From Laetiporus sulphureus 93-53 (taxonomy: Eukaryota > Basidiomycota > Agaricomycetes > Polyporales > Laetiporaceae): 58,710 bases of DNA. The stretch lies in assembly GCF_001632365.1 (NCBI RefSeq), contig NW_024468518.1, positions 19,566-78,275 of the forward strand. Reading direction: 5' to 3'. A program made the position numbers and the translations under genes. The notes under the pieces are model-generated. The model was not told where the DNA came from, searched no databases, and saw only the letters and a program-made list of their open reading frames with translations. Of the stretch, positions 26,420 through 37,509 are shown piece after piece; positions within the stretch are counted from its first letter, which is position 1, and each line of letters opens with the position of its first letter.

Positions 26420-28078
26420 AGAGGGCGCAAAAGGCTACTCACAGGAAGATATCATGGTCCCACACACCACCGAGCTCATAATAACTAACCATCCGATTAT
26501 CGGTCATCCTCAGTGCATCCGCAACCTCCGCTGCTGCTCTGCCGGAAAAAGAATATCGCTCTGGATGCTCAAAATCAGTGTCGGCTTGTTCAACAGAGAG
26601 TGAAGACCCTCCGCAAGGTCAGGCAAATGTCTTGGCGGGTTTGATGGTGGCGGATGTGACTTCGAGTGAAATAACGACCAATGGTAGTAAGAATGTGAAG
26701 GCGAGGGCGGGTGGGAGGACATCGAATGCGGGAGGCGAGGAGGAGGGCTGCACGGCACCGGAGGAGTGAGATGGATCTCGGGAAATGTAGAGCGCGTGAG
26801 ATCGAAGACGTCCATGGCCTTGGAAATGTAAATCAAAGAATTTATGTCATACTACAGGTAGAAGGACTCACCAGGAAGGCATCCCCGTAAGTCATGCTGT
26901 ACGTTTGATCAGAGGAAGGACGATATATCACGAACCTGGTAGTCAAGAAAGGTCAATCAAGAAATCAGGGCAAAGTGCTGGTGAGCGGGGCAATGACGAT
27001 TCATCCGGCGTTATTGCTAACTCAGGAAGCGGCTTCAATTTACAGCTGAATCTCTGATCCCGTTCAGCACTTGAGCGATATGTGACAGCTGCAATCTCTG
27101 ATGATTTCATGTCAGCACTACATGTCAGATGAACACGTACGTCGAGCCAGCTTCATGCCCGTATGTGGTGGTAACAGAACCCATTCTTCCAGTTCCAGTT
27201 GGGATCTGCCATTAACACTGATACCCGAGTGAGCGAAGCTATAAATCACTCCACCCTCATAGGACGTACCACTATGCTGGGCAAATCGCATAGCGATCGC
27301 GCTTGGGCTGCTTCTCGCGGTCTCGCTGATGCTAACGACCTTTCCCATATGCTCAGGATACAGCCATCCTGCTGCCAAACTTTGCATAGCACCCACTGAT
27401 GATCCCATGCTCACGTAGAGTTTGTCAATCTCAAGATGAATGAGCAAGCAGAACTGTGCGCGAACCCTATCGAAGATCGAGATCACAGGGAAATTGTGTG
27501 GCATACGGCTTCCCCGTAGAAGGATCAACTGACGAGGGACCGGTTGAGCCATAGCATCCTCCGAGGACATTTGTGCATATGATGAACTTCTCCCACCAGC
27601 CTTCAGAAGAGTTCAAATCCGTCAATACGGCATGAGAGGACGCCGACAAGCCAGTATGGAGCAGGATGACGTTGTCCTTCGCAGGCGACAACTCTCCCCA
27701 TGTCTCGTACGTGATATCGAATCCAAGAAGAGTGGGGCCATACGTCAGCGATATGGGCTTCGAGTAGCGGTAAATTTTGTAGGATGCAGGATTCGGTCTC
27801 GCATACGGCGGCTCCGGTCCTGAGTGCAGAGTGGGAGAGGTCAGTGTGTCAGTGTGCGTGGGTAATTGCGAGGCGTGGAGCCGTGACTCCCGGGCGGCAT
27901 GGGCTTTGACACAAGAAGGGACTATCGTGCGGTCTTGTTGAGGCGATAGACGACTGGACGGTGGCTGCGTGAGTGGATGGCTTGTTACGTATGAGAGTGT
28001 GCGGGAGCTTGAGGCGTCGCTGCGCGACCCTCGCAAGATGTCTAGGAACACCAGGCATGACGCTATCCATATGACCAT
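26420..28078 (-). pseudogene. Homoserine O-acetyltransferase (Met2), broken
   Basis: Starts at 28078 with a leader, then [90 protein letters not shown], the nucleophile elbow SMGSSVGAMQSLAAGWLYPE, VVSISETARSSPSAIAMR, PPHTGMKLARR, INSLIYISKAMDVFDLTRS, LILSIQSDILFPAEQQ, VADALRMTD and YYELGGVWDHDIFL. Met2 acetylates homoserine for methionine synthesis with an alpha/beta-hydrolase fold. Lesions: about 12 residues missing between WWEKFI and ICTNV, a one-base insertion near 27498, a one-base deletion near 26535, and loss of the last exon. The elbow is unusual too (G-A-M where the family has G-G-M). Confidence 0.85.
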
Positions 28079-29147
28079 CCCATGTCAGTTCTCATCATGA
28101 TTGATTTATTTCTCGATAGCACTCGCCTTTAATCGTATATACAATGGGAGAGCTGACGCTGGCGGGAGATCAGGTAGCAGAATGTGGGTAGAGGACCGTA
28201 TGGGGCAAGAGCAGGCAGATCTCTCCCAAAGACAGGAAGATATAAGAGGGAGAAGTCGTCAGGGACATATTCGGGCCTTCGTTCATTTGGATAGGGCACC
28301 ACCATGGTCCGCAGTCCACAGAATTTGCACCTTGCGTGCAATCGCACATGCCTGCACGCGACCACGTGCGCTTCTGACGTGCGCCATGGCGGGGGGTACT
28401 CATTCTAGAACTCATTCTAGAAGATCTGATGCGAAGCACTCGCAGGGCTTACGTAATCTATCAGCCCCTTTTCGGGAAACATGTCGTTGCTTCTGTGGGC
28501 CGGGCGGCCACTTATAATGGATGGCGGATCAATCGATCACGATGCACGTTGTGGACTATGCTATGCGACCGTCGCATTCCGAGTCCACGAGACCAGGAAA
28601 GAATTCAACGACCATCTTCACGGGATGGACAGTAGTGTTGCACCTGGAATTTATGTTGTCTGTTATTTGGAACCGGCGCCGCCATGCCAACTAAGAATTC
28701 TTCGTGACTCGGGATGCATCACATCACGTGCACCGGGGTCGGTGGACCAATCGGCGTGGTTACGCCCACATTCGTGAGCAGATAGACTCTCCTCTTCGCA
28801 GAATCCAGATATTCTTCTCTGATAGGTACGCGCATGCTCTGAAAAATTACAACGCCAGCGTGTGCTCATCTTGATCGATAGAATACGGTGCAAGAGCTGC
28901 TTCAGTGCTAGTTAATAGCAATTCCCACAAGACGCAGGTACGTGGTGACCGCTGAGGTTCGTCATAGATAGTCTCATTTTGTCACAGTCTTCCCCCCGCG
29001 CTCTGAGCATTGTCAGTTTCTGTCAGGGTTGAGTGGTGAGTTTGCACACCTCAGAAGGCTGCTTCAGCGTAATGTCCACCCATCTTATATTATAAGGGTA
29101 TCAGCGTATTGATTTCATATGCGCCTACAGAATTTCTATATCTGGAC
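28079..29147. other. Region upstream of the transposase gene
   Basis: Contains a frame with a Cys/His cluster (CGLCYATVAFRVHETRKEFND near 28550) that I cannot assign. No clear terminal inverted repeat of a DNA transposon was found by eye. Likely includes the promoter and 5' end of the element. Confidence 0.35.
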
Positions 29148-32100
29148 ATGAACTATCATTTACATAAGATTAAACGACGCTTTCGACGATGGCAGGAACT
29201 TAAGCGAGCAGAAAGAGCACAAGTAACATATCGGACGGTGGTATTTGCCTCATTCTACTTTCTGTTCTCATTTATGCTTTTCGTGGCATGTCTCCTATGT
29301 CCAGCAGTGGGAATAGAGCTTCCCATTGCAGCCATCATTTGTTTTGTTGATTTTGCCGCAATCCTTGAGTTATCAAGTTGTACGTCGAGTAGATTTGCTT
29401 CTGCTTCTGACAGTGTCTGGCTCATTATGATGAATTTATAGTTCTCGTTCTCCAGTGCGAACGTGCCGCGCTGCGATCAAGGCGTCTTTCAACATCATTT
29501 GGGGCCTATACTGTCACCATAGTCATTTTGGTCTTCCTCGGCTCACTCAATGCGTCAATGCTCATGGTGGTGTTCATGTGCGGACTTGACACATGCATGA
29601 TGTATTCGCTGCTGCTGTTGCTATGCTTCACCGATTCAGATAACTGCAGACGCGGCAACTCTGTAGCTCCCACTCAAAGGATCGCTCAAAGAACGGGCTC
29701 AGAATCCACCATGAGACAGGGCAAGGCCGTGACCATATTCATACAGGGTACTAATCTCAAAGCAGTTCAGATTGGTAAGTATCTCATACATATACGCAAA
29801 ATGCTGCAAGCTTACTGGCGCAGTTATCAATCAGCAAACGTCCGCTGCAGATGTCATGCACATCTTATCTCAACGACATCTTATCCCCAGCCTCCGGAGA
29901 TTGCAACCTGCTCTCTACTACAAGTCATCACCTCTCGAAAATGACGCTAATCTGTTCAGCCTCGGAGTACGAGATCTGTCAACACTTCATTGCAGGTTCC
30001 GAGTCTTAGGAGGATCTAGAAATGGTAAGCTAAGTAATCTTGTTTGAACTCGAGGTCTTGTCTCTAACAGAAAGATTGTCTATCGGAATTGCAGCAGGGC
30101 CAGGCCCAATGACATTTCAACCTTTGGCAATCTCTGAGCAGAAGCTTGGTACGATGTGTCTCCAGTTCTTAGCATTCGACCTGACGTAACTCTCAGCATC
30201 GACAACAGACAGGAGAAATGCCAAAAGCCGTAGAACAGATCAACGCAAACTGCAGCATAAACTGATGCTGGAATCTCTGGAATCTGAGGGATTGGATGAA
30301 TATGGACAAGCAGTTAACCCTGCAAGTGCGCAGGACTCACCGAGTCTCCCGGCTGTGACACACCATGAAACGGATCGCCATGGGCGCACAGTCAAGCCAG
30401 CCCTCATAACATCAGAAACCTTTCCGTCTTCAGCGGCAGCACCCACGACTCCAGATAATTCCAGTGCGGGCTCATCCACACAACACGAGGATCAAAAGAT
30501 TATCGAGGAAGGACGAGCATGGGCAGACCTTCTGCACCTCATCTCATACGTGGACCATTACTTGTCTTTACTCAAGCTGGACGAGCCTCTAAAGTTCATT
30601 CTCATCAAGGCTACGACGGCCGTTGGGAGTTCAAGTGATGGCACCTCTCGCCCACCTTACGATAACTATGCATTGGATACCACCAGTAAAAGTGTGCGCC
30701 TATTCCTCCAACATGAGAAATGGCTTTGTTCCATGCTTGGAGACGTGCAGGAACTACCATTCCTGGATGATCCTAGGTATCAGCAGCAACGCGATGTGCT
30801 GGAGAGCCGAATACGCAGTGAAATAAACCTATTGCAAGATCGCCGATTGCGTGATTGGTGCAAACAGACACCCCCTACAGCTGATCACAGTGCGCCGCAA
30901 GCGGAGCATTATGTGGACACAAGTGAGTGATACATAGAAATGGGGCTGCCGCATTGCATAAGTTTAATCATGACCATATAGATGAATACTTCACGATGTT
31001 CGACCATCGCCTGAAACCAGTGGTATTGGCATATCATATGGTCGCATTGACCATGAATCTGTTGCAACGCCTGCCTCTCAGGGGAAGCAAGATTCTGCTA
31101 TCGGGGCTTCGGACAATCATCCGCCTATCAACAACATTTGCTCGGGGCGGATTCGGTAGCACTGAAGACGACTCACTGCTGAATGAGTTACCAAAGGATA
31201 TTCGAACCATTTACCGCCACTTCAATCTTGATCCCCACACACGTGCGTACGCATGTTGTCCAAAGTGCTTCGCACTATATGTGCGTCACGCTTGCCCCGA
31301 ATTCTGCTTACACCGAGAACTGCCCGAGAGCGAACCATGCAGAGAAAAATTGTGGCGGATCCGCACGATCCGGGGCAAACAATTTGCATATCCATTGAAA
31401 GTATTCCTGTACCAGGACATGAAGCATTGGATGGCTCGGCTTTTGTCTCGCCCTGGCATGGAGGACATTATGAGCAGCGCAAATCGGCATGCCGAAACAG
31501 TGCCAAAGGAGAAGCAACGAGACATATGGGACGCTCCGCTCTTCCAGAACTTCAAGGGCCCTGATGGCATCTCCTCATTTGCGCATGGCCCCTCCCATGA
31601 ATCGCGGTACTTGTTCAGTCTATCTATCGACGGCTTTAATCCTTTTTACACAAAGGTGGCAAAGCAGAATGTATCTGTTACAGGAATCTACATGGTTTGC
31701 CTGAACCTCCCTCCCCACCTGCGATACTTGCCAGAAAATACATATCTAGTTGGCATCATTCCCGGTCCCTCTAAACCGTCACTCAATCAAGTGAACCATT
31801 TTCTAGAGCCCCTCATTGATGACCTTTTGGCATTCTGGGACCCAGGAGTTTTCTTCAGTCGCACCGCATCATATCCTAAGGGACGATTGGTTCACTGTGC
31901 AGTCATACCTTTAGTGTGTGATCTACCAGCAGCACGGCAGGTTTCTGGTCATGGCTCCTACAGTGCCTCATTCTTCTGCAGCTTCTGCAAGCTCAGACTT
32001 GAAGATATCGAAAATTTTGACAGTAACACGTGGCCGAAACGCGATCCTATGGAGCACCGTAAGCATGCAGAAGAATGGAGAAAAGCAAATTCCTATGAGG

Positions 32101-34529
32101 CTCGTGCAAGCATATTCAAAGCGCATGGTGTAAGATGGTCCCAGTTGCTTAAACTTCCTTATTGGGATCCCATAGCATTCACCGTCGTGGACACAATGCA
32201 TAATCAATACCTGGGTCTCATCAGAACTCATTGCAAAGAGATCTGGGGCATGAACATTGAAGTGGAAGATGGGGATGGGATGTATGTTCATGCTCGCAAT
32301 GTTCCACCACGACCGTCCGACACTGACATGCAAGAGGGTAAGCATCTCTTGTATGGAGGCTCAATGTCACAACTGGCAAAATGTACGAAGGCAGTGCTAT
32401 GGCATCTTTGTTTTGAGCATGACCTTCGCTGTGCAAGAACCAAAAAACAGCTGCTAGCTTCCTTGGTTCATTGGGTGAGTATCACATTACTTGGTCGGTA
32501 TCTTTCGTTCTGATGTACAAGTCGGACGCAGCGCATACAAGAGGGCTTTGAAGTAGACACATCCTCTGCCATGGATGTGACTTCCAAGTCTAATAATTCA
32601 ACATCCACCTTACCCATGATGGAGGAACGTGTGAGAAAGGCGGAGGCATCATTGGCGCGAGGCAGTCAAGCAAAGACACTGGCCACCCATTGTAAGCCGG
32701 CGTTGATAGCTATGTGCGAATCCCGACATCTCGAATCCACTGGCGTGAAAGCTGTTCTCGCTGAGAGGCTTATCACATGGGTAAGATATGAGCTATTGCT
32801 GGTCGTACGAACACTTATATTGGAGTTCTGGCGCATTTAGCAGTTACAATTAGCCAATGGACAGCAGAATAAGCCAGTGGGTGCATCGTAGCTTCATTTG
32901 CTATATGCAATGAATTGATACTGTATTTATTAGCAGAACACTCATGCGACTGCCGTCGATGTTAGTACTCTTTTCTGCTTCTTTATCAAGAATTACTCAC
33001 GATCTAATCAGCCTCCACGTCTGTCACATGAACAGCACGAAGAAGGAAAAACCAGGAATGCTTCCACTGTTGTATTGGGTCGAAACACACTCGCACAAGT
33101 TCACGCAGACATGGAGCAGACAGAACTTCCATCCTGGGTCAGTCCCGCACCATGCAATTTTGGCACTGAAACAAGGGGCAAGCTGCATGCAGATCAATGG
33201 CTGGCAGCCTGCTCTATTAACCTTCCTATAACGCTTGTGCGTCTATGGGGAAAAGAGCAAGGTAGAAAGCAGAAAATGCTGCAGAACTTCATGGACCTCC
33301 TCACTGCTGTCACGATAAGCAGCATGCTCGAGATTTCTCATCAGCATATTCAGATCTACGAGAGGTCTTTGTTGCGATACCTGCAAACTTTGCGGGAGCT
33401 CTACAAGGAAGCGGTCATCAAACCTAACCATCACTTGGCTTTGCATGTCGGTGAATCCCTCCGAATATTTGGTCCTGCTCACTCCACGCGTACATTCTCC
33501 ACCGAGAGAATGAACTACCTCCTCATGCAGACAAATACTAATGGAAAATTTGGTATGTTACGTCCTGAAATACTGTGTCTGTATCAATGATGACCCAGTC
33601 CCCATATAGGCGAGCTTGAATTGACTTATATGACACACACGTGCCGAGCGGCGAACCTCCGTGCTTTGCTACGGCATGATAAAATCCGCGGTATAATGGA
33701 CGAGTTCATGACTTGTTATGATGGCATTTACAACGAGGATAGACGAGGAACACGGCTGCGAGAGTCAACAACACTAGATGCACAACCGCAAGGCATACCC
33801 GGGAAGAATAGCAAGGTCACTTCTTTGGAGAAAAATCAATTTATGGCTTTGCTCCAGCTGCTCAACGCCGAGATAGGACATGACATGTACGTTGATGCCA
33901 GGGACGTTAGAAGGACTCCTGGTTGTCAACAGCTGTCCAACAAGGGCACAAACTGTCCGAAAATCATGATCGGAGGTATCACATATCGTCCTCATAATGT
34001 GGCACCAAAGGATAGCAACATCATCTTTTCCTCACCTCATACTGCGCATACTCAAGCAGGAAGGATCATCAATATCTTCTTGCATCAACATCGCGATGTA
34101 CATGGAAAGCTTGTCGAAGAATCATTTGTAAGTATTGAGAGCCTGCAAGAGCTCACTGAGCTAGATCGTCTCAGTGATCCATACTCCAATTTTCCTGGGG
34201 TCGGTGGCAAGCTCTATTACAATGCATATTCTTCAGATATAAATGTCGTCAGGCCAAGCAACATTATATCTCACTTTGCAAAGACCCCTATGGAGGTTCA
34301 AGGCATCAAGAGATCTTGCATACATGTGCTACCACTGGATCGTGTACGCTTTTTCTTCACTGCTGTGGGTACTTGAAAAAATCTGATTTAAGTTAACGCA
34401 CAGATGATGCACTTGGCAGATTCATTTGCTGATGATGAGGAAACAGAGATGGAGGAAAGCCTCACCAATGACTCCTCAGAGTTGCCTAGTGGCGTATTAG
34501 ATGATTTCTTCCACCAGCATGGAAGATAA
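29148..34529 (+). CDS. Tnp2/CACTA-like transposase fused to membrane helices, a ubiquitin-like domain and SAP-like segments
   Basis: Twelve exons: 29148-29376, 29442-29774, 29824-30024, 30071-30148, 30197-30922, 30982-32474, 32532-32780, 32841-32876, 32937-32960, 33012-33552, 33610-34364, 34404-34529. They sum to 4791 nt, exactly 1597 codons with the stop. Residues 28-142 hold three or four hydrophobic helices. Residues 172-252 look ubiquitin-like, from KAVTIFIQGTNLKAVQI to LSTLHCRFRVLGG. A cysteine-rich segment (CCPKCFALY, CPEFCLH) precedes the transposase core: SLSIDGFNPF, PENTYLVGIIPGPSKP, VCDLPAARQVSGHGSY, FTVVDTMHNQYLG, SWVSPAPCNFGTETRGKLHA, DQWLAACSINLPITLVRLWG. SAP-like segments lie near 986-1020 and 1072-1103. 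No stop or frameshift is seen. The start could instead be at 29711 if the membrane part is a separate product, but exon 2 carries both in one frame. Confidence 0.85.
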
Positions 34530-34694
34530 TGCTTACATCTTAGTCATGAATGATAATATCGTGGTAACGCGTTCGATGACCCAATAATCGGCCACGTAGC
34601 CTTCATCATTCCCTTGCCTCTCTTCCCTCGCATCATTGAATGGTATACCAAGGTGAGCACTGGCTAACGAAAAGCGCAGTGCTACCGGCCGCGC

Positions 34695-35560
34695 TCACTT
34701 GACGTAGTCCCCGGCGGTGACCACTTCGTACTTGGGCGGCCGATCTTCGGAGACACAGCTCGGAATCGGCTACAAGAACCTGACTCAATAATCTGCAAGT
34801 TCAGCTTGTCGGACACTGTACCTCGAGCTTGACATTATATAATCTGTGCGAAAGAAGAGCGGGATTGAGTAGCGACAGACGCCACTGCGGTTTATCGCAC
34901 GATGCACGGTCGATTTGAAGACATCGTCTGCACAAGTGTCAGCTGGTTCTGTTCAACGCAGAACTTCTTCCGATGACCCACTCGTCCACCGAGCAAATTG
35001 GTCACCGAGGCTGATGTAATTCGATGTGAGCAGAGGGGCGCCAAGGGAGAGTTCGGAAAATACTTGATGACCAGTGTGCCGGAAATGGGCGGTGCCTCTA
35101 TCCACTGCTTCTGCTTGTTCAGAACTTGCAAGGCCTGGATGCCGGGTTCTTGCCATCAGATGGTGAAGCACTGCATTGCACATCGTGAGCGGCAAGAATC
35201 AGCCACCTCCTATCGCCAGATAAGCTGACCTCAAAACTGCAGACGTAACACTAAGAAATTAAAACAATAAGTCAAGACAGGTGCTGGCTTACTCGGTGTG
35301 TGCGCCGATACCGATGACGCGGTCGTCCACCAGAACTGTCTAGGGTGGATAATGTAGGACATGCATGATGGCGGCAGAGTTCTTCGTCTGGAAAGTAGAC
35401 ATCGTGCATCATCTATGCTGCTGAACTGACTGATTTCACCTTATCATCGAAGTAGTCCTCTGGAAGATTCAATGCCAGAGCGAACAGGGGGAACATTTTC
35501 TTGCCTAGCTCGACAGCGGCATGACTGCAGTCAAAATATGAACTGATGCACTAGTCCTTT
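34695..35560 (-). pseudogene. 2-oxoglutarate/Fe(II) oxygenase (isopenicillin-N-synthase-like), broken
   Basis: Exons on the minus strand: GKKMFPLFALALNLPEDYFD, then NSAAIMHVLHYPP, DDRVIGIGAHTDFE (first iron ligands HTD), CFTI, IQALQVLNKQKQWIEAPPIS, GTLVI, GDQFARWT, DDVFKSTVHRAINRSG (distal His), RYSIPLFF (the Arg-x-Ser that binds 2-oxoglutarate) and SCVSEDRPPKYEVVTAGDYV with stop at 34695. This is the double-stranded beta-helix family used in secondary metabolism and oxidative tailoring. Lesions: a TAG after HYPP fits CAG to TAG, a TGA after CFTI, and two extra bases in the DY/NVKLE stretch. The metal and 2-oxoglutarate residues are still recognisable. The N-terminal part above 35560 is not clear. 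Confidence 0.8.
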
Positions 35561-35929
35561 ATATGGAACACCGTCGAGATCTATCGAATTCGCGTCAGTT
35601 AAGAGCCCGCAGAAGACATGTGCGCGTGTCGCAATCATGCTCAACCGTCGCATCGCCAGTTTCAAGAGAACATGTCCGGAATACTTCCCATTATCAAGGC
35701 AGAAAGGATAAGCCCCCTGCTCATAGCGGGCGAGATGCAGCTCACGGGTGTGGGAGTAAGGAGGACCCTGCGGACGGTTATGAGCTGTGACATGGTACGA
35801 ATGTAGCGCAGGATCATTTCATCATTATACAATGCCGGGTTGAATATATTTATTGCCCTTGCAATGGACGTTCGCCTGCTTGTTCACACATTTTCACCGC
35901 AAGAACTCAAATTTCGAAGTCATCAAGCA

Positions 35930-36310
35930 CTGTCCGGTCGCGCGGTTTTGACGACACGGCCACTTCGCAACTCACACAAATTCACGCAGATCTTCTCTAA
36001 CAACGTTTGTATTCTATTTTCTACACTACGCGATGGTAAACTATGGGGTACGCTACGCTACGGTACAAATGCGAGATGCGGGCGCAATGCGCATACGGTA
36101 CGGTACAGTAGCGAGTACGTATGCGAGGTATGGTACTACGTAACGGCTATCGTGTCTAATAGGTATCGTATCTAGCGGGTATTCTATGCGATGGGTATAC
36201 TACGAGAGCGGCTACCGTATGTATGAGATGAGAGACGGAGTACGGTACGCTATGCTACGGCTATGGTACGTCTACGGTAAGGCTACATGAAATCTACACT
36301 AGCGGTGTGT
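35930..36310 (+). repeat. Dispersed repeat, copy 2
   Basis: Matches the reverse complement of 8187-8590 across its length, with many point differences. Dense in GGTACG, TACGGTA and ACTACG words. It sits about 370 bases beyond the 2OG-oxygenase pseudogene. Confidence 0.7.
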
Positions 36311-37509
36311 ATCTTTATGACTGCACTACGCTACAACTACACTACAACTAAACTACGCTGGACCTTGAGCTTGAGGAGCTGTGGGGGGAGACAATAAGTA
36401 AGGTCACCGAGAAGAGAGAGAGAAACAGAGAAAAAGAAACAGAAAAAAAAGAAACTGATTCCCCGGAACCCTTTCGTTCCGCCAGTTGCCCTTACACCCT
36501 CTTGACGTTACCCTCCACATCCACACACCGCAACCCTCCCCTCCGGATCCCCCGTCTGTTCAGGGTACCCCGGAGAACCCGCCCTGGACAACCCATCTAG
36601 GTGCTGCCAGAGCTGGGATGATCCCTGCCCCGCCTGGATCCCCCGCGTCCGGGATCACCACAGCAGGACATTGAAACATTTGGGTGCCCAGATTCCCCTG
36701 TGTAGGGTCCTCCGGAGTGAATGTTTATCGATGTCCATCCACCTCTGAATTCCCCGCGCTGGGTTTCCAAAGTCGAATGGTTGACGTTCCGCGATCCGCT
36801 TCGCGTTCCCTGCGTCCAGGGCTTCGTCCGAAGCTGGAACGTCTGCGTTTGTTTGCATATTGCACGCTCTGCATTCCCGGGCCCAGGGACCTCAGAGCGG
36901 ATAAATATGAGGAATGAGGAATAGACCGTTTTGCATATAAATATAAGCTGAAACCGCGATAGTCGAGAGCATAGACGAGAGCACGATAGGAAGATGAGAT
37001 GAGAGCATGAGAACAGGATGACGAGATAGCATGAGAGAAGGATGATGAGATAGCACGAGAGCAGGATGATGAGATGCGCGAGAGCAGGACGACGAGAAAA
37101 CACGACGAGAGTGCCGAGATAGCCGAATGGAATTATGTTGTAGATGCAATGATGTGATGTGAGAGTGCTGTCGATGATAATGATAACAAAAGTGCCGTAC
37201 CCAGAGAAGTCGCCAGTTGCGACGTGTTGCCGTACACGTCGATGAGAGAACCGCCACCAAGATGAACAAGATGTCAGGCCTTCGGAGCAAGTCAGCGATA
37301 ACAACAACGTTTACACAACGAAATGACGCACCAAATAACATACCACTGGCCGCTAGTCCACGAAATAGCGGAATCACGAGACACGAAGTCCGTGGGCAGT
37401 GCATAAGCCCGCCTTAATGCATACGAGATAACGTTTCACCTGTTGAACACATCAACAAGGAATTGTGGGCTTAGAAGTCGGTGCGATTGCTCACCATATT
37501 GACCACCAG
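36311..37509. other. Low-complexity stretch with minisatellite
   Basis: A purine run (AGAAACAGAGAAAAAGAAAC near 36420), a C-rich part and the minisatellite listed separately. No protein recognised. Confidence 0.4.
36985..37115 (+). repeat. Minisatellite, units of about 24-27 bases
   Basis: Repeated words GAGAGCA.GA.AGGATGA.GAGATAGCA in about five imperfect copies. Confidence 0.65.

What the first reader, a model, noticed from the sequence alone, without database searches (positions are those of the whole stretch)
29148..34529. Single intact gene joining membrane helices, a ubiquitin-like domain, a Tnp2 transposase and SAP-like segments
Twelve exons splice to exactly 1597 codons including the stop, with every intron obeying GT-AG and every junction keeping the frame. 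I know Tnp2/CACTA-type transposases, but not one with an N-terminal membrane domain plus a ubiquitin fold. Such a layout could place the transposase at the nuclear or ER membrane and release it by cleavage behind the ubiquitin-like GG. The release idea is inference.
Basis: partly seen in the sequence, partly recalled or inferred. Interest (0 to 1): 0.88.

Follow-up and report, generated by a model that had tools for sequence, protein, structure and literature searches.

The report
Transposase with membrane and ubiquitin-like front
A fungal jumping-gene enzyme related to the antibody-gene recombinase RAG1 carries, at its front end, four predicted membrane helices and a ubiquitin-like domain, and the same order recurs in other copies in the same genome, which hints that the enzyme may be held on a membrane before it acts on DNA.

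Summary
The core is a Tnp2 (Transposase_21), RAG1-like DDE transposase of the fungal Plavaka/CMCT kind, with catalytic and zinc residues present. The SAP-like segment is below the Pfam cut-off and also seen in relatives. The membrane and ubiquitin-like (UBL) front is not a chance read-through: a copy 53% identical overall on contig C51 has it from the same start methionine, and three decayed copies keep the UBL with membrane-type exons before it. In 5 of 5 copies the UBL ends in Gly-Gly. Seven more distant transposases of the genome lack it; six show a cysteine motif there. None of 20 public relatives found shows it, and two dedicated protein searches found none. Best reading: a Plavaka-like transposon subfamily whose transposase gained a membrane anchor and UBL. 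Membrane holding, and release behind Gly-Gly, are inference. UBL similarity is weak by score. No transposon ends were found; expression was not testable.

The parts
29148..29379 (+). exon 1: start Met, basic N-terminus, first hydrophobic hairpin (TM1-2)
   Evidence: Splice search; hydropathy; aligned with C51 copy from Met1
29442..29774 (+). exon 2: second hydrophobic hairpin (TM3-4), spacer, first part of the ubiquitin-like domain
   Evidence: hairpin homology between copies (6 of 13 pairs reached by 0-3 of 2000 shuffles)
29824..30024 (+). exon 3: rest of the ubiquitin-like domain
   Evidence: Pfam ubiquitin/Rad60-SLD sub-threshold; profile alignment to ubiquitin; copies
30009..30014 (+). Gly251-Gly252 at the end of the UBL, present in 5 of 5 copies
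30095..30148 (+). exon 4, linker
30197..30922 (+). exon 5: linker with basic cluster RRNAKSRRTDQRK and conserved GLDEYGQ; similarity to the public transposases found begins at residue 323 or later
30982..32474 (+). exon 6: RAG1-like transposase core with D732, D829 and CxxC 848/851
31629..31631 (+). catalytic Asp 1 (D732)
   Evidence: Asp in 20 of 21 rows, one gap
31920..31922 (+). catalytic Asp 2 (D829)
   Evidence: Asp in 18 of 21 rows
32532..32780 (+). exon 7: SAP-like segment (residues 1070-1096) at its end
   Evidence: below Pfam cut-off
32841..32876 (+). exon 8 (short; boundaries least certain)
32934..33552 (+). exon 9: H1275-x3-H1279 and catalytic Glu E1299 (33504-33506); may hold one more 51-base intron near 32961-33011
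33610..34343 (+). exon 10: C-terminal part, found again at several loci
34404..34529 (+). exon 11: acidic tail and stop (last intron donor 34344 or 34365)
34556..34659 (+). stretch 91% identical to part of an MFS transporter-like locus on C1 (read as a decayed exon), directly behind the gene and also behind the C106 copy
   Evidence: MFS_1 match of a downstream ORF of the C1 locus, below cut-off

Best explanation
The gene encodes the transposase of a fungal Plavaka-like DNA transposon subfamily (Tnp2/CMCT, RAG1-like DDE core) that carries an N-terminal module of four membrane helices and a ubiquitin-like domain at the place where six of seven more distant transposases examined in this genome have a short cysteine (zinc-type) motif. 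Shown by sequence: the core with D732, D829, E1299, CxxC and HxxxH; the module; its recurrence in copies. Most likely mechanism (inferred): the basic N-terminus and loops keep both ends of the helix bundle on the cytosolic side, so the protein is made as an ER or outer-nuclear-envelope membrane protein with the UBL and transposase facing the cytosol. The UBL is there for host ubiquitin-type machinery: cleavage behind Gly-Gly by a UBL-specific protease, or extraction by a UBL-binding unfoldase, frees the transposase, whose new N-terminus carries a basic, NLS-like cluster, to enter the nucleus and cut DNA. Membrane holding would limit activity and protect the host.
Against: No terminal inverted repeats or target-site duplications were found. 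No transcript data. The UBL stays below Pfam cut-offs and only 2 of 5 members match the ubiquitin model at E <= 1; hhalign probability is 27% and a mixed ubiquitin-family profile gave a score of 13.5 only; the best PDB profile match, E 0.009, is vaccinia A47 (virus name by recall); the UBL fold model failed (pLDDT 54, all helix). First hairpin: 22% identity to the C51 copy, codon positions 0.61/0.51/0.61, 70 of 2000 shuffles reach the score; of the six hairpin pairs with the window only one is reached by fewer than 19 of 2000. The TM profile gave no hit in L020. L023, 55% identical, lacks the module and has CpG 0.85. RAG TM-scores are low (query-normalised 0.32-0.39). Nothing here shows membrane insertion, cleavage, or nuclear entry.
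Confidence: 0.55

Rival explanations
1. The membrane-UBL module stays on the transposase and serves tethering rather than release: the enzyme works at the inner nuclear membrane or targets insertion near the nuclear periphery, and the UBL is a docking domain.
For: Module found together with the transposase linker at the five loci; Gly-Gly could be structural, as these are two of 17 invariant UBL columns.
Against: No targeting or location data; the linker behind Gly-Gly is poorly conserved (31%) and basic, which suits a processed junction as well.
Confidence: 0.2
2. Exons 1-3 make a separate regulatory protein from the same element (by alternative splicing or polyadenylation), for example a membrane inhibitor, and the transposase starts at an internal Met.
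For: All 20 public relatives found align only from query residue 323 or later; TE proteins can be made from overlapping transcripts (general knowledge).
Against: Frame stays open through GT-AG introns in the window and in the C51 copy from the UBL into the transposase; no stop behind the UBL in either.
Confidence: 0.15
3. The gene is a domesticated, immobile host gene rather than an element protein.
For: Of the five copies with the UBL it is the only one without stops, apparent frameshift or interruption; no ends found; coding-type substitution pattern.
Against: Same family present as decayed, CpG-poor copies at several loci, and mildly lowered CpG in the window gene itself (0.74); neighbours are duplicated gene fragments.
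Confidence: 0.15
4. The N-terminal exons are chance open frames read into the gene model.
For: UBL match is below the Pfam cut-off; the first hairpin shows no coding-type substitution pattern against the C51 copy.
Against: Start Met, hairpins, UBL and intron positions recur in a copy 53% identical overall.
Confidence: 0.03

Closest known systems
Plavaka DNA transposons (CMCT clade: CACTA/EnSpm-Mirage-Chapaev-Transib) of Agaricomycotina, as described in PMC12730594 (passages seen)
   Same: DDE with CxxC and HxxxH between second D and E; Agaricomycete relatives
   Different: Membrane-UBL front; the words ubiquitin and transmembrane do not occur in that paper's main text; its terminal motifs and target duplications were not found here
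RAG1 / RAG-like / Transib transposases
   Same: Fold of the exon 6 core, zinc residues
   Different: 9-13% identity in the matches listed down to BbRAGL, low TM-scores; N-terminal module different
Public Tnp2 relatives P0001-P0020 (Grifola, Hericium, Lentinus, Phlebia, Ganoderma, Pleurotus and others)
   Same: Core and C-terminal part; SAP name in some
   Different: None of the 20 aligns before query residue 323; 5 of 20 (P0007, P0010, P0011, P0012, P0016) have CxCxx[CH] in the first 150 residues
Membrane proteins with UBL domains (Dsc3, HERP, TMUB1; recalled) and UBL fusions such as FUBI-eS30 (weak profile hits)
   Same: UBL near membrane helices, or UBL ending in Gly-Gly in front of another protein
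   Different: No sequence relation shown beyond the weak UBL similarity; order and partner differ

Membership tests
Tnp2 / Plavaka-like CMCT transposase | Transposase_21 domain | tested here: met
   57.5 bits, cut-off 28.6
Tnp2 / Plavaka-like CMCT transposase | DDE triad with C(2)C and H(3-4)H between second D and E | tested here: met
   D732, D829, C848, C851, H1275, H1279, E1299
Tnp2 / Plavaka-like CMCT transposase | RAG1/Transib-type core fold | tested here: met
Tnp2 / Plavaka-like CMCT transposase | Termini TGT..ACA or CATCA..TGATG with 2-3 base target duplication | tested here: inconclusive
   no inverted ends above shuffles between 28340-29147 and 34530-34720; ends may lie elsewhere or be lost
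Plavaka proper (against EnSpm) | Placement in a transposase tree with named reference elements | not tested
   no named Plavaka references were fetched; label rests on motifs and host range
Ubiquitin-like (beta-grasp) domain | Similarity to ubiquitin over the whole domain | tested here: met
   weak but consistent: E 1.3e-4 for the window member, 2 of 5 members matching; hhalign over 75 columns above 30 shuffles; PDB profile hits mostly ISG15 or FUBI at E 0.018-1.8, best hit A47 not of this kind
Ubiquitin-like (beta-grasp) domain | Pfam ubiquitin score over the curated cut-off (a scoring bar, not a trait) | tested here: not met
   22.1 bits for the window member, cut-off 25.4
Ubiquitin-like (beta-grasp) domain | Predicted beta-grasp fold | tested here: inconclusive
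   exon 3 alone, without alignment, gave a poor model
Ubiquitin-like (beta-grasp) domain | C-terminal Gly-Gly | tested here: met
   5 of 5 copies
Ubiquitin-type precursor | Cleavage behind Gly-Gly | not testable with these tools
   needs protein
Multi-pass membrane protein | Several hydrophobic helices with flanking positive charge | tested here: met
   hydropathy and charge counts only
SAP domain | Pfam SAP over cut-off | tested here: not met
   18.5 of 23.9 bits; called SAP-like only

The most novel reading that the evidence does not exclude
A RAG1-like transposase made as a latent, membrane-anchored precursor: a four-helix anchor holds it at the ER or nuclear envelope and a built-in ubiquitin-like domain hands it to host UBL proteases or unfoldases, whose cut behind Gly-Gly frees the enzyme for the nucleus. 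Transposition would thus be gated by membrane proteolysis, as in membrane-bound transcription factors.
Probability: 0.2. Interest if true: 0.88.

Novelty: new variant of a known kind. Interest (0 to 1): 0.6.

Why it matters
Transposases act on nuclear DNA, and I know of none built behind several membrane helices (recall; none turned up in the paper listings). If the module works, it shows a way for an element to throttle or time its own enzyme through membrane holding and ubiquitin-type processing, and it makes the question testable with one construct. It also adds a membrane-UBL domain pair for which two public protein searches gave no relative.

Tried and rejected
Terminal inverted repeats: the repeat finder on window 27000-36500 and on L019 and a dedicated comparison (best score 9.5, reached by 2 of 6 shuffles) gave nothing convincing. 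The idea that 34659 is the element's 3' end was dropped: the matching C106 and C1 loci go on alike beyond it, and the C1 locus is an MFS transporter-like gene.

Public relatives with the module: residues 1-300 of the full protein (1811 candidates) and N-terminal alignment A1 (7996 candidates scored): none at E <= 1. This does not prove absence in other fungi: gene models of transposons are often cut, candidates are limited by length and shared words, and only proteins could be searched.

Internal repeat of the two hairpins (exon duplication): each recovered hairpin has [CS]xxD (8 of 8; one with a stop inside, written X), and phase-1 introns lie about 10 codons behind it in L019 and L022, but hairpin 1 against hairpin 2 does not beat shuffles in 9 of 10 pairs. 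Left as an idea.

UBL fold by structure prediction failed. Literature searches for a membrane or ubiquitin-like transposase listed no such paper; the library holds open-licence PMC papers only. PF13796 'Sensor' match of the membrane part (E 3e-4, below cut-off, 1 of 2 members) was taken as hydrophobic-composition noise.

L023, 55% identical in the transposase part from residue 285 on, lacks the module: its first reading frame has no ATG before that point, so it looks cut at the 5' end and is not counted as a contrary case; a reader may see it as one. C106 and C81 copies were found by their C-terminal part; no UBL or membrane match in L031 or L036. Of the 16 Tnp2 places, five (C26, C3, C71, C50, C6) were not examined.
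Full report
What was checked. The window lies at 19566-78275 of contig C9 of an unnamed fungal genome of 38.6 Mb. I re-derived the gene from the raw sequence with a splice-aware search. ATG 29148 connects to the stop ending at 34529 in one open frame with GT-AG introns. This uncertainty does not touch the membrane part or the UBL.

The front. Hydropathy shows two long hydrophobic stretches, residues about 26-84 and 92-142, most simply four helices, with basic N-terminus (10 Lys/Arg to 2 Asp/Glu), middle loop (4 to 1) and stretch behind (6 to 3). By the positive-inside rule (general knowledge) all three face the cytosol. Behind lies the UBL, which resembles ubiquitin to its end (STLHCRFRVLGG) but stays below Pfam cut-offs, with 2 of 5 members matching. 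An HMM alignment to ubiquitin from the same genome scores 23.3 (probability 27%) against 13.9 for the best of 30 shuffles by probability, while a mixed family profile gave only 13.5. A profile search of the PDB lists 26 weak matches, mostly ISG15 and FUBI-eS30, with Gly-Gly aligned in the ISG15 example shown; the first, vaccinia A47, is not a UBL as far as I know.

Recurrence. A search of the genome with residues 1-314 finds the UBL at four other loci: C51:60346, C28:459457, C28:447739 and C58:68656, plus a weak linker match in L023; a search with the C51 sequence finds the same five loci plus one weak match at C6 (E 0.66, not followed). The C51 copy (L019) aligns from Met1 to residue 1433, 744 of 1396 identical, no stop and one apparent frameshift; a matching C-terminal part lies 6 kb further on (C51:70608-70997), so this copy seems interrupted. 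The other three are decayed but keep membrane-type exons before the UBL: L021 and L022 by alignment and profile (E 0.002 and 4e-8), L020 by reading frames and the hairpin comparison only (no profile hit). The transposase core follows in L020 and L022; in L021 the linker follows, but no Tnp2 match was listed near it. Introns at codon 78-80 and at codon 189, phase 1, are shared by window, L019 and L022 and, read off the alignment, by L021. Thus at 5 of 5 loci with the UBL the order is membrane, UBL, linker.

Contrast. Eight further Tnp2 loci were fetched (L023-L030); with window, L019 and L020 that is 11 of the 16 places. None of the eight has a UBL or membrane match. L023 is close (55%) but begins at residue 285 without an ATG, apparently cut. 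Of the seven more distant ones (30-35% identity), L025-L030 have a CxC-x(2-4)-C motif in a frame near or before the start of the alignment; the L024 motif lies inside and is doubtful, and no chance control was run for this motif. So the membrane-UBL front stands where six of these seven have a cysteine motif.

Is it a mobile element? For: several decayed copies, CpG observed/expected 0.43 (L020), 0.59 (L021), 0.20 (L022), 0.05 (C106) against 0.95-1.00 in the window's flanks; window gene 0.74, L019 0.75, L023 0.85; low values are expected from methylated, silenced transposons. Against or open: no ends and no target duplication. The surroundings are a patchwork: a homoserine O-acetyltransferase-like gene (name by recall; no Pfam hit to the ORF) in a stretch 26604-28374 that is 85% identical to C1, the MFS-like fragment at 34556-34659, and 34698-35571 at 91% to C2.

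Selection. Between window and L019, fourfold sites are near saturation (differences 0.62-0.88 in regions with 15 or more such sites). Codon positions 1, 2 and 3 differ by 0.36, 0.30, 0.69 in the UBL and 0.20, 0.11, 0.58 in the Tnp2 core, by 0.47, 0.43, 0.75 in TM3-4, and by 0.61, 0.51, 0.61 in TM1-2, which shows no coding-type pattern. Hairpins of different copies are alike beyond composition for 6 of 13 pairs (0-3 of 2000 shuffles); the other seven range from 6 to 207 of 2000, and only one of the six pairs with the window is in the first group. What is kept seems mainly the hydrophobic character and the [CS]xxD motif.

How it probably works. Shown: one open frame that joins an anchor-like module, a UBL with conserved Gly-Gly, a basic linker and a complete RAG1-like active site. 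Inferred: insertion into the ER or nuclear envelope with both ends in the cytosol; handling of the UBL by host ubiquitin-type machinery; release and nuclear entry. Rivals: permanent tethering, a separately made membrane protein, and domestication. I put the identity as a Plavaka-like transposase with a conserved membrane-UBL module at about 0.85, the holding idea at about 0.4, and cleavage behind Gly-Gly at about 0.2.

Novelty. Not found: any public protein with the module or, in search listings, a paper on such a transposase (open-licence library only; Iyer et al. 2014 on fungal TET-linked transposons is recalled, not read). The core is a known kind; the front is a new variant.

Noticed in passing
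window 26604-28374: Stretch with a homoserine O-acetyltransferase-like frame (minus strand; name by recall) is 84.6% identical to C1:1431502-1433338, so a duplicated gene lies just upstream; similarity stops at 28374.
   Followed up: partly
window 34556-34659: Fragment alike to an MFS transporter-like locus on C1, directly behind the transposase gene; the C106 copy has the same junction and a longer MFS-like remnant.
   Followed up: partly
window 34698-35571: 91% identical to C2:202403-203273; nature unknown, no Pfam hit in the one ORF tried.
   Followed up: partly
window 29148-29629; L019, L020, L021, L022: Recovered membrane hairpins carry [CS]xxD in their second helix (8 of 8), and in L019 and L022 phase-1 introns lie about 10 codons behind it: possible exon duplication, not supported by shuffles.
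   Followed up: partly
L019 and C51:64580-70608: The C51 copy seems interrupted by about 6 kb before its C-terminal part.
   Followed up: no
P0001 (Grifola frondosa): Gene model joins a Tnp2 transposase with a WD40 propeller and a C-terminal hydrophobic segment; perhaps a merged gene prediction.
   Followed up: no
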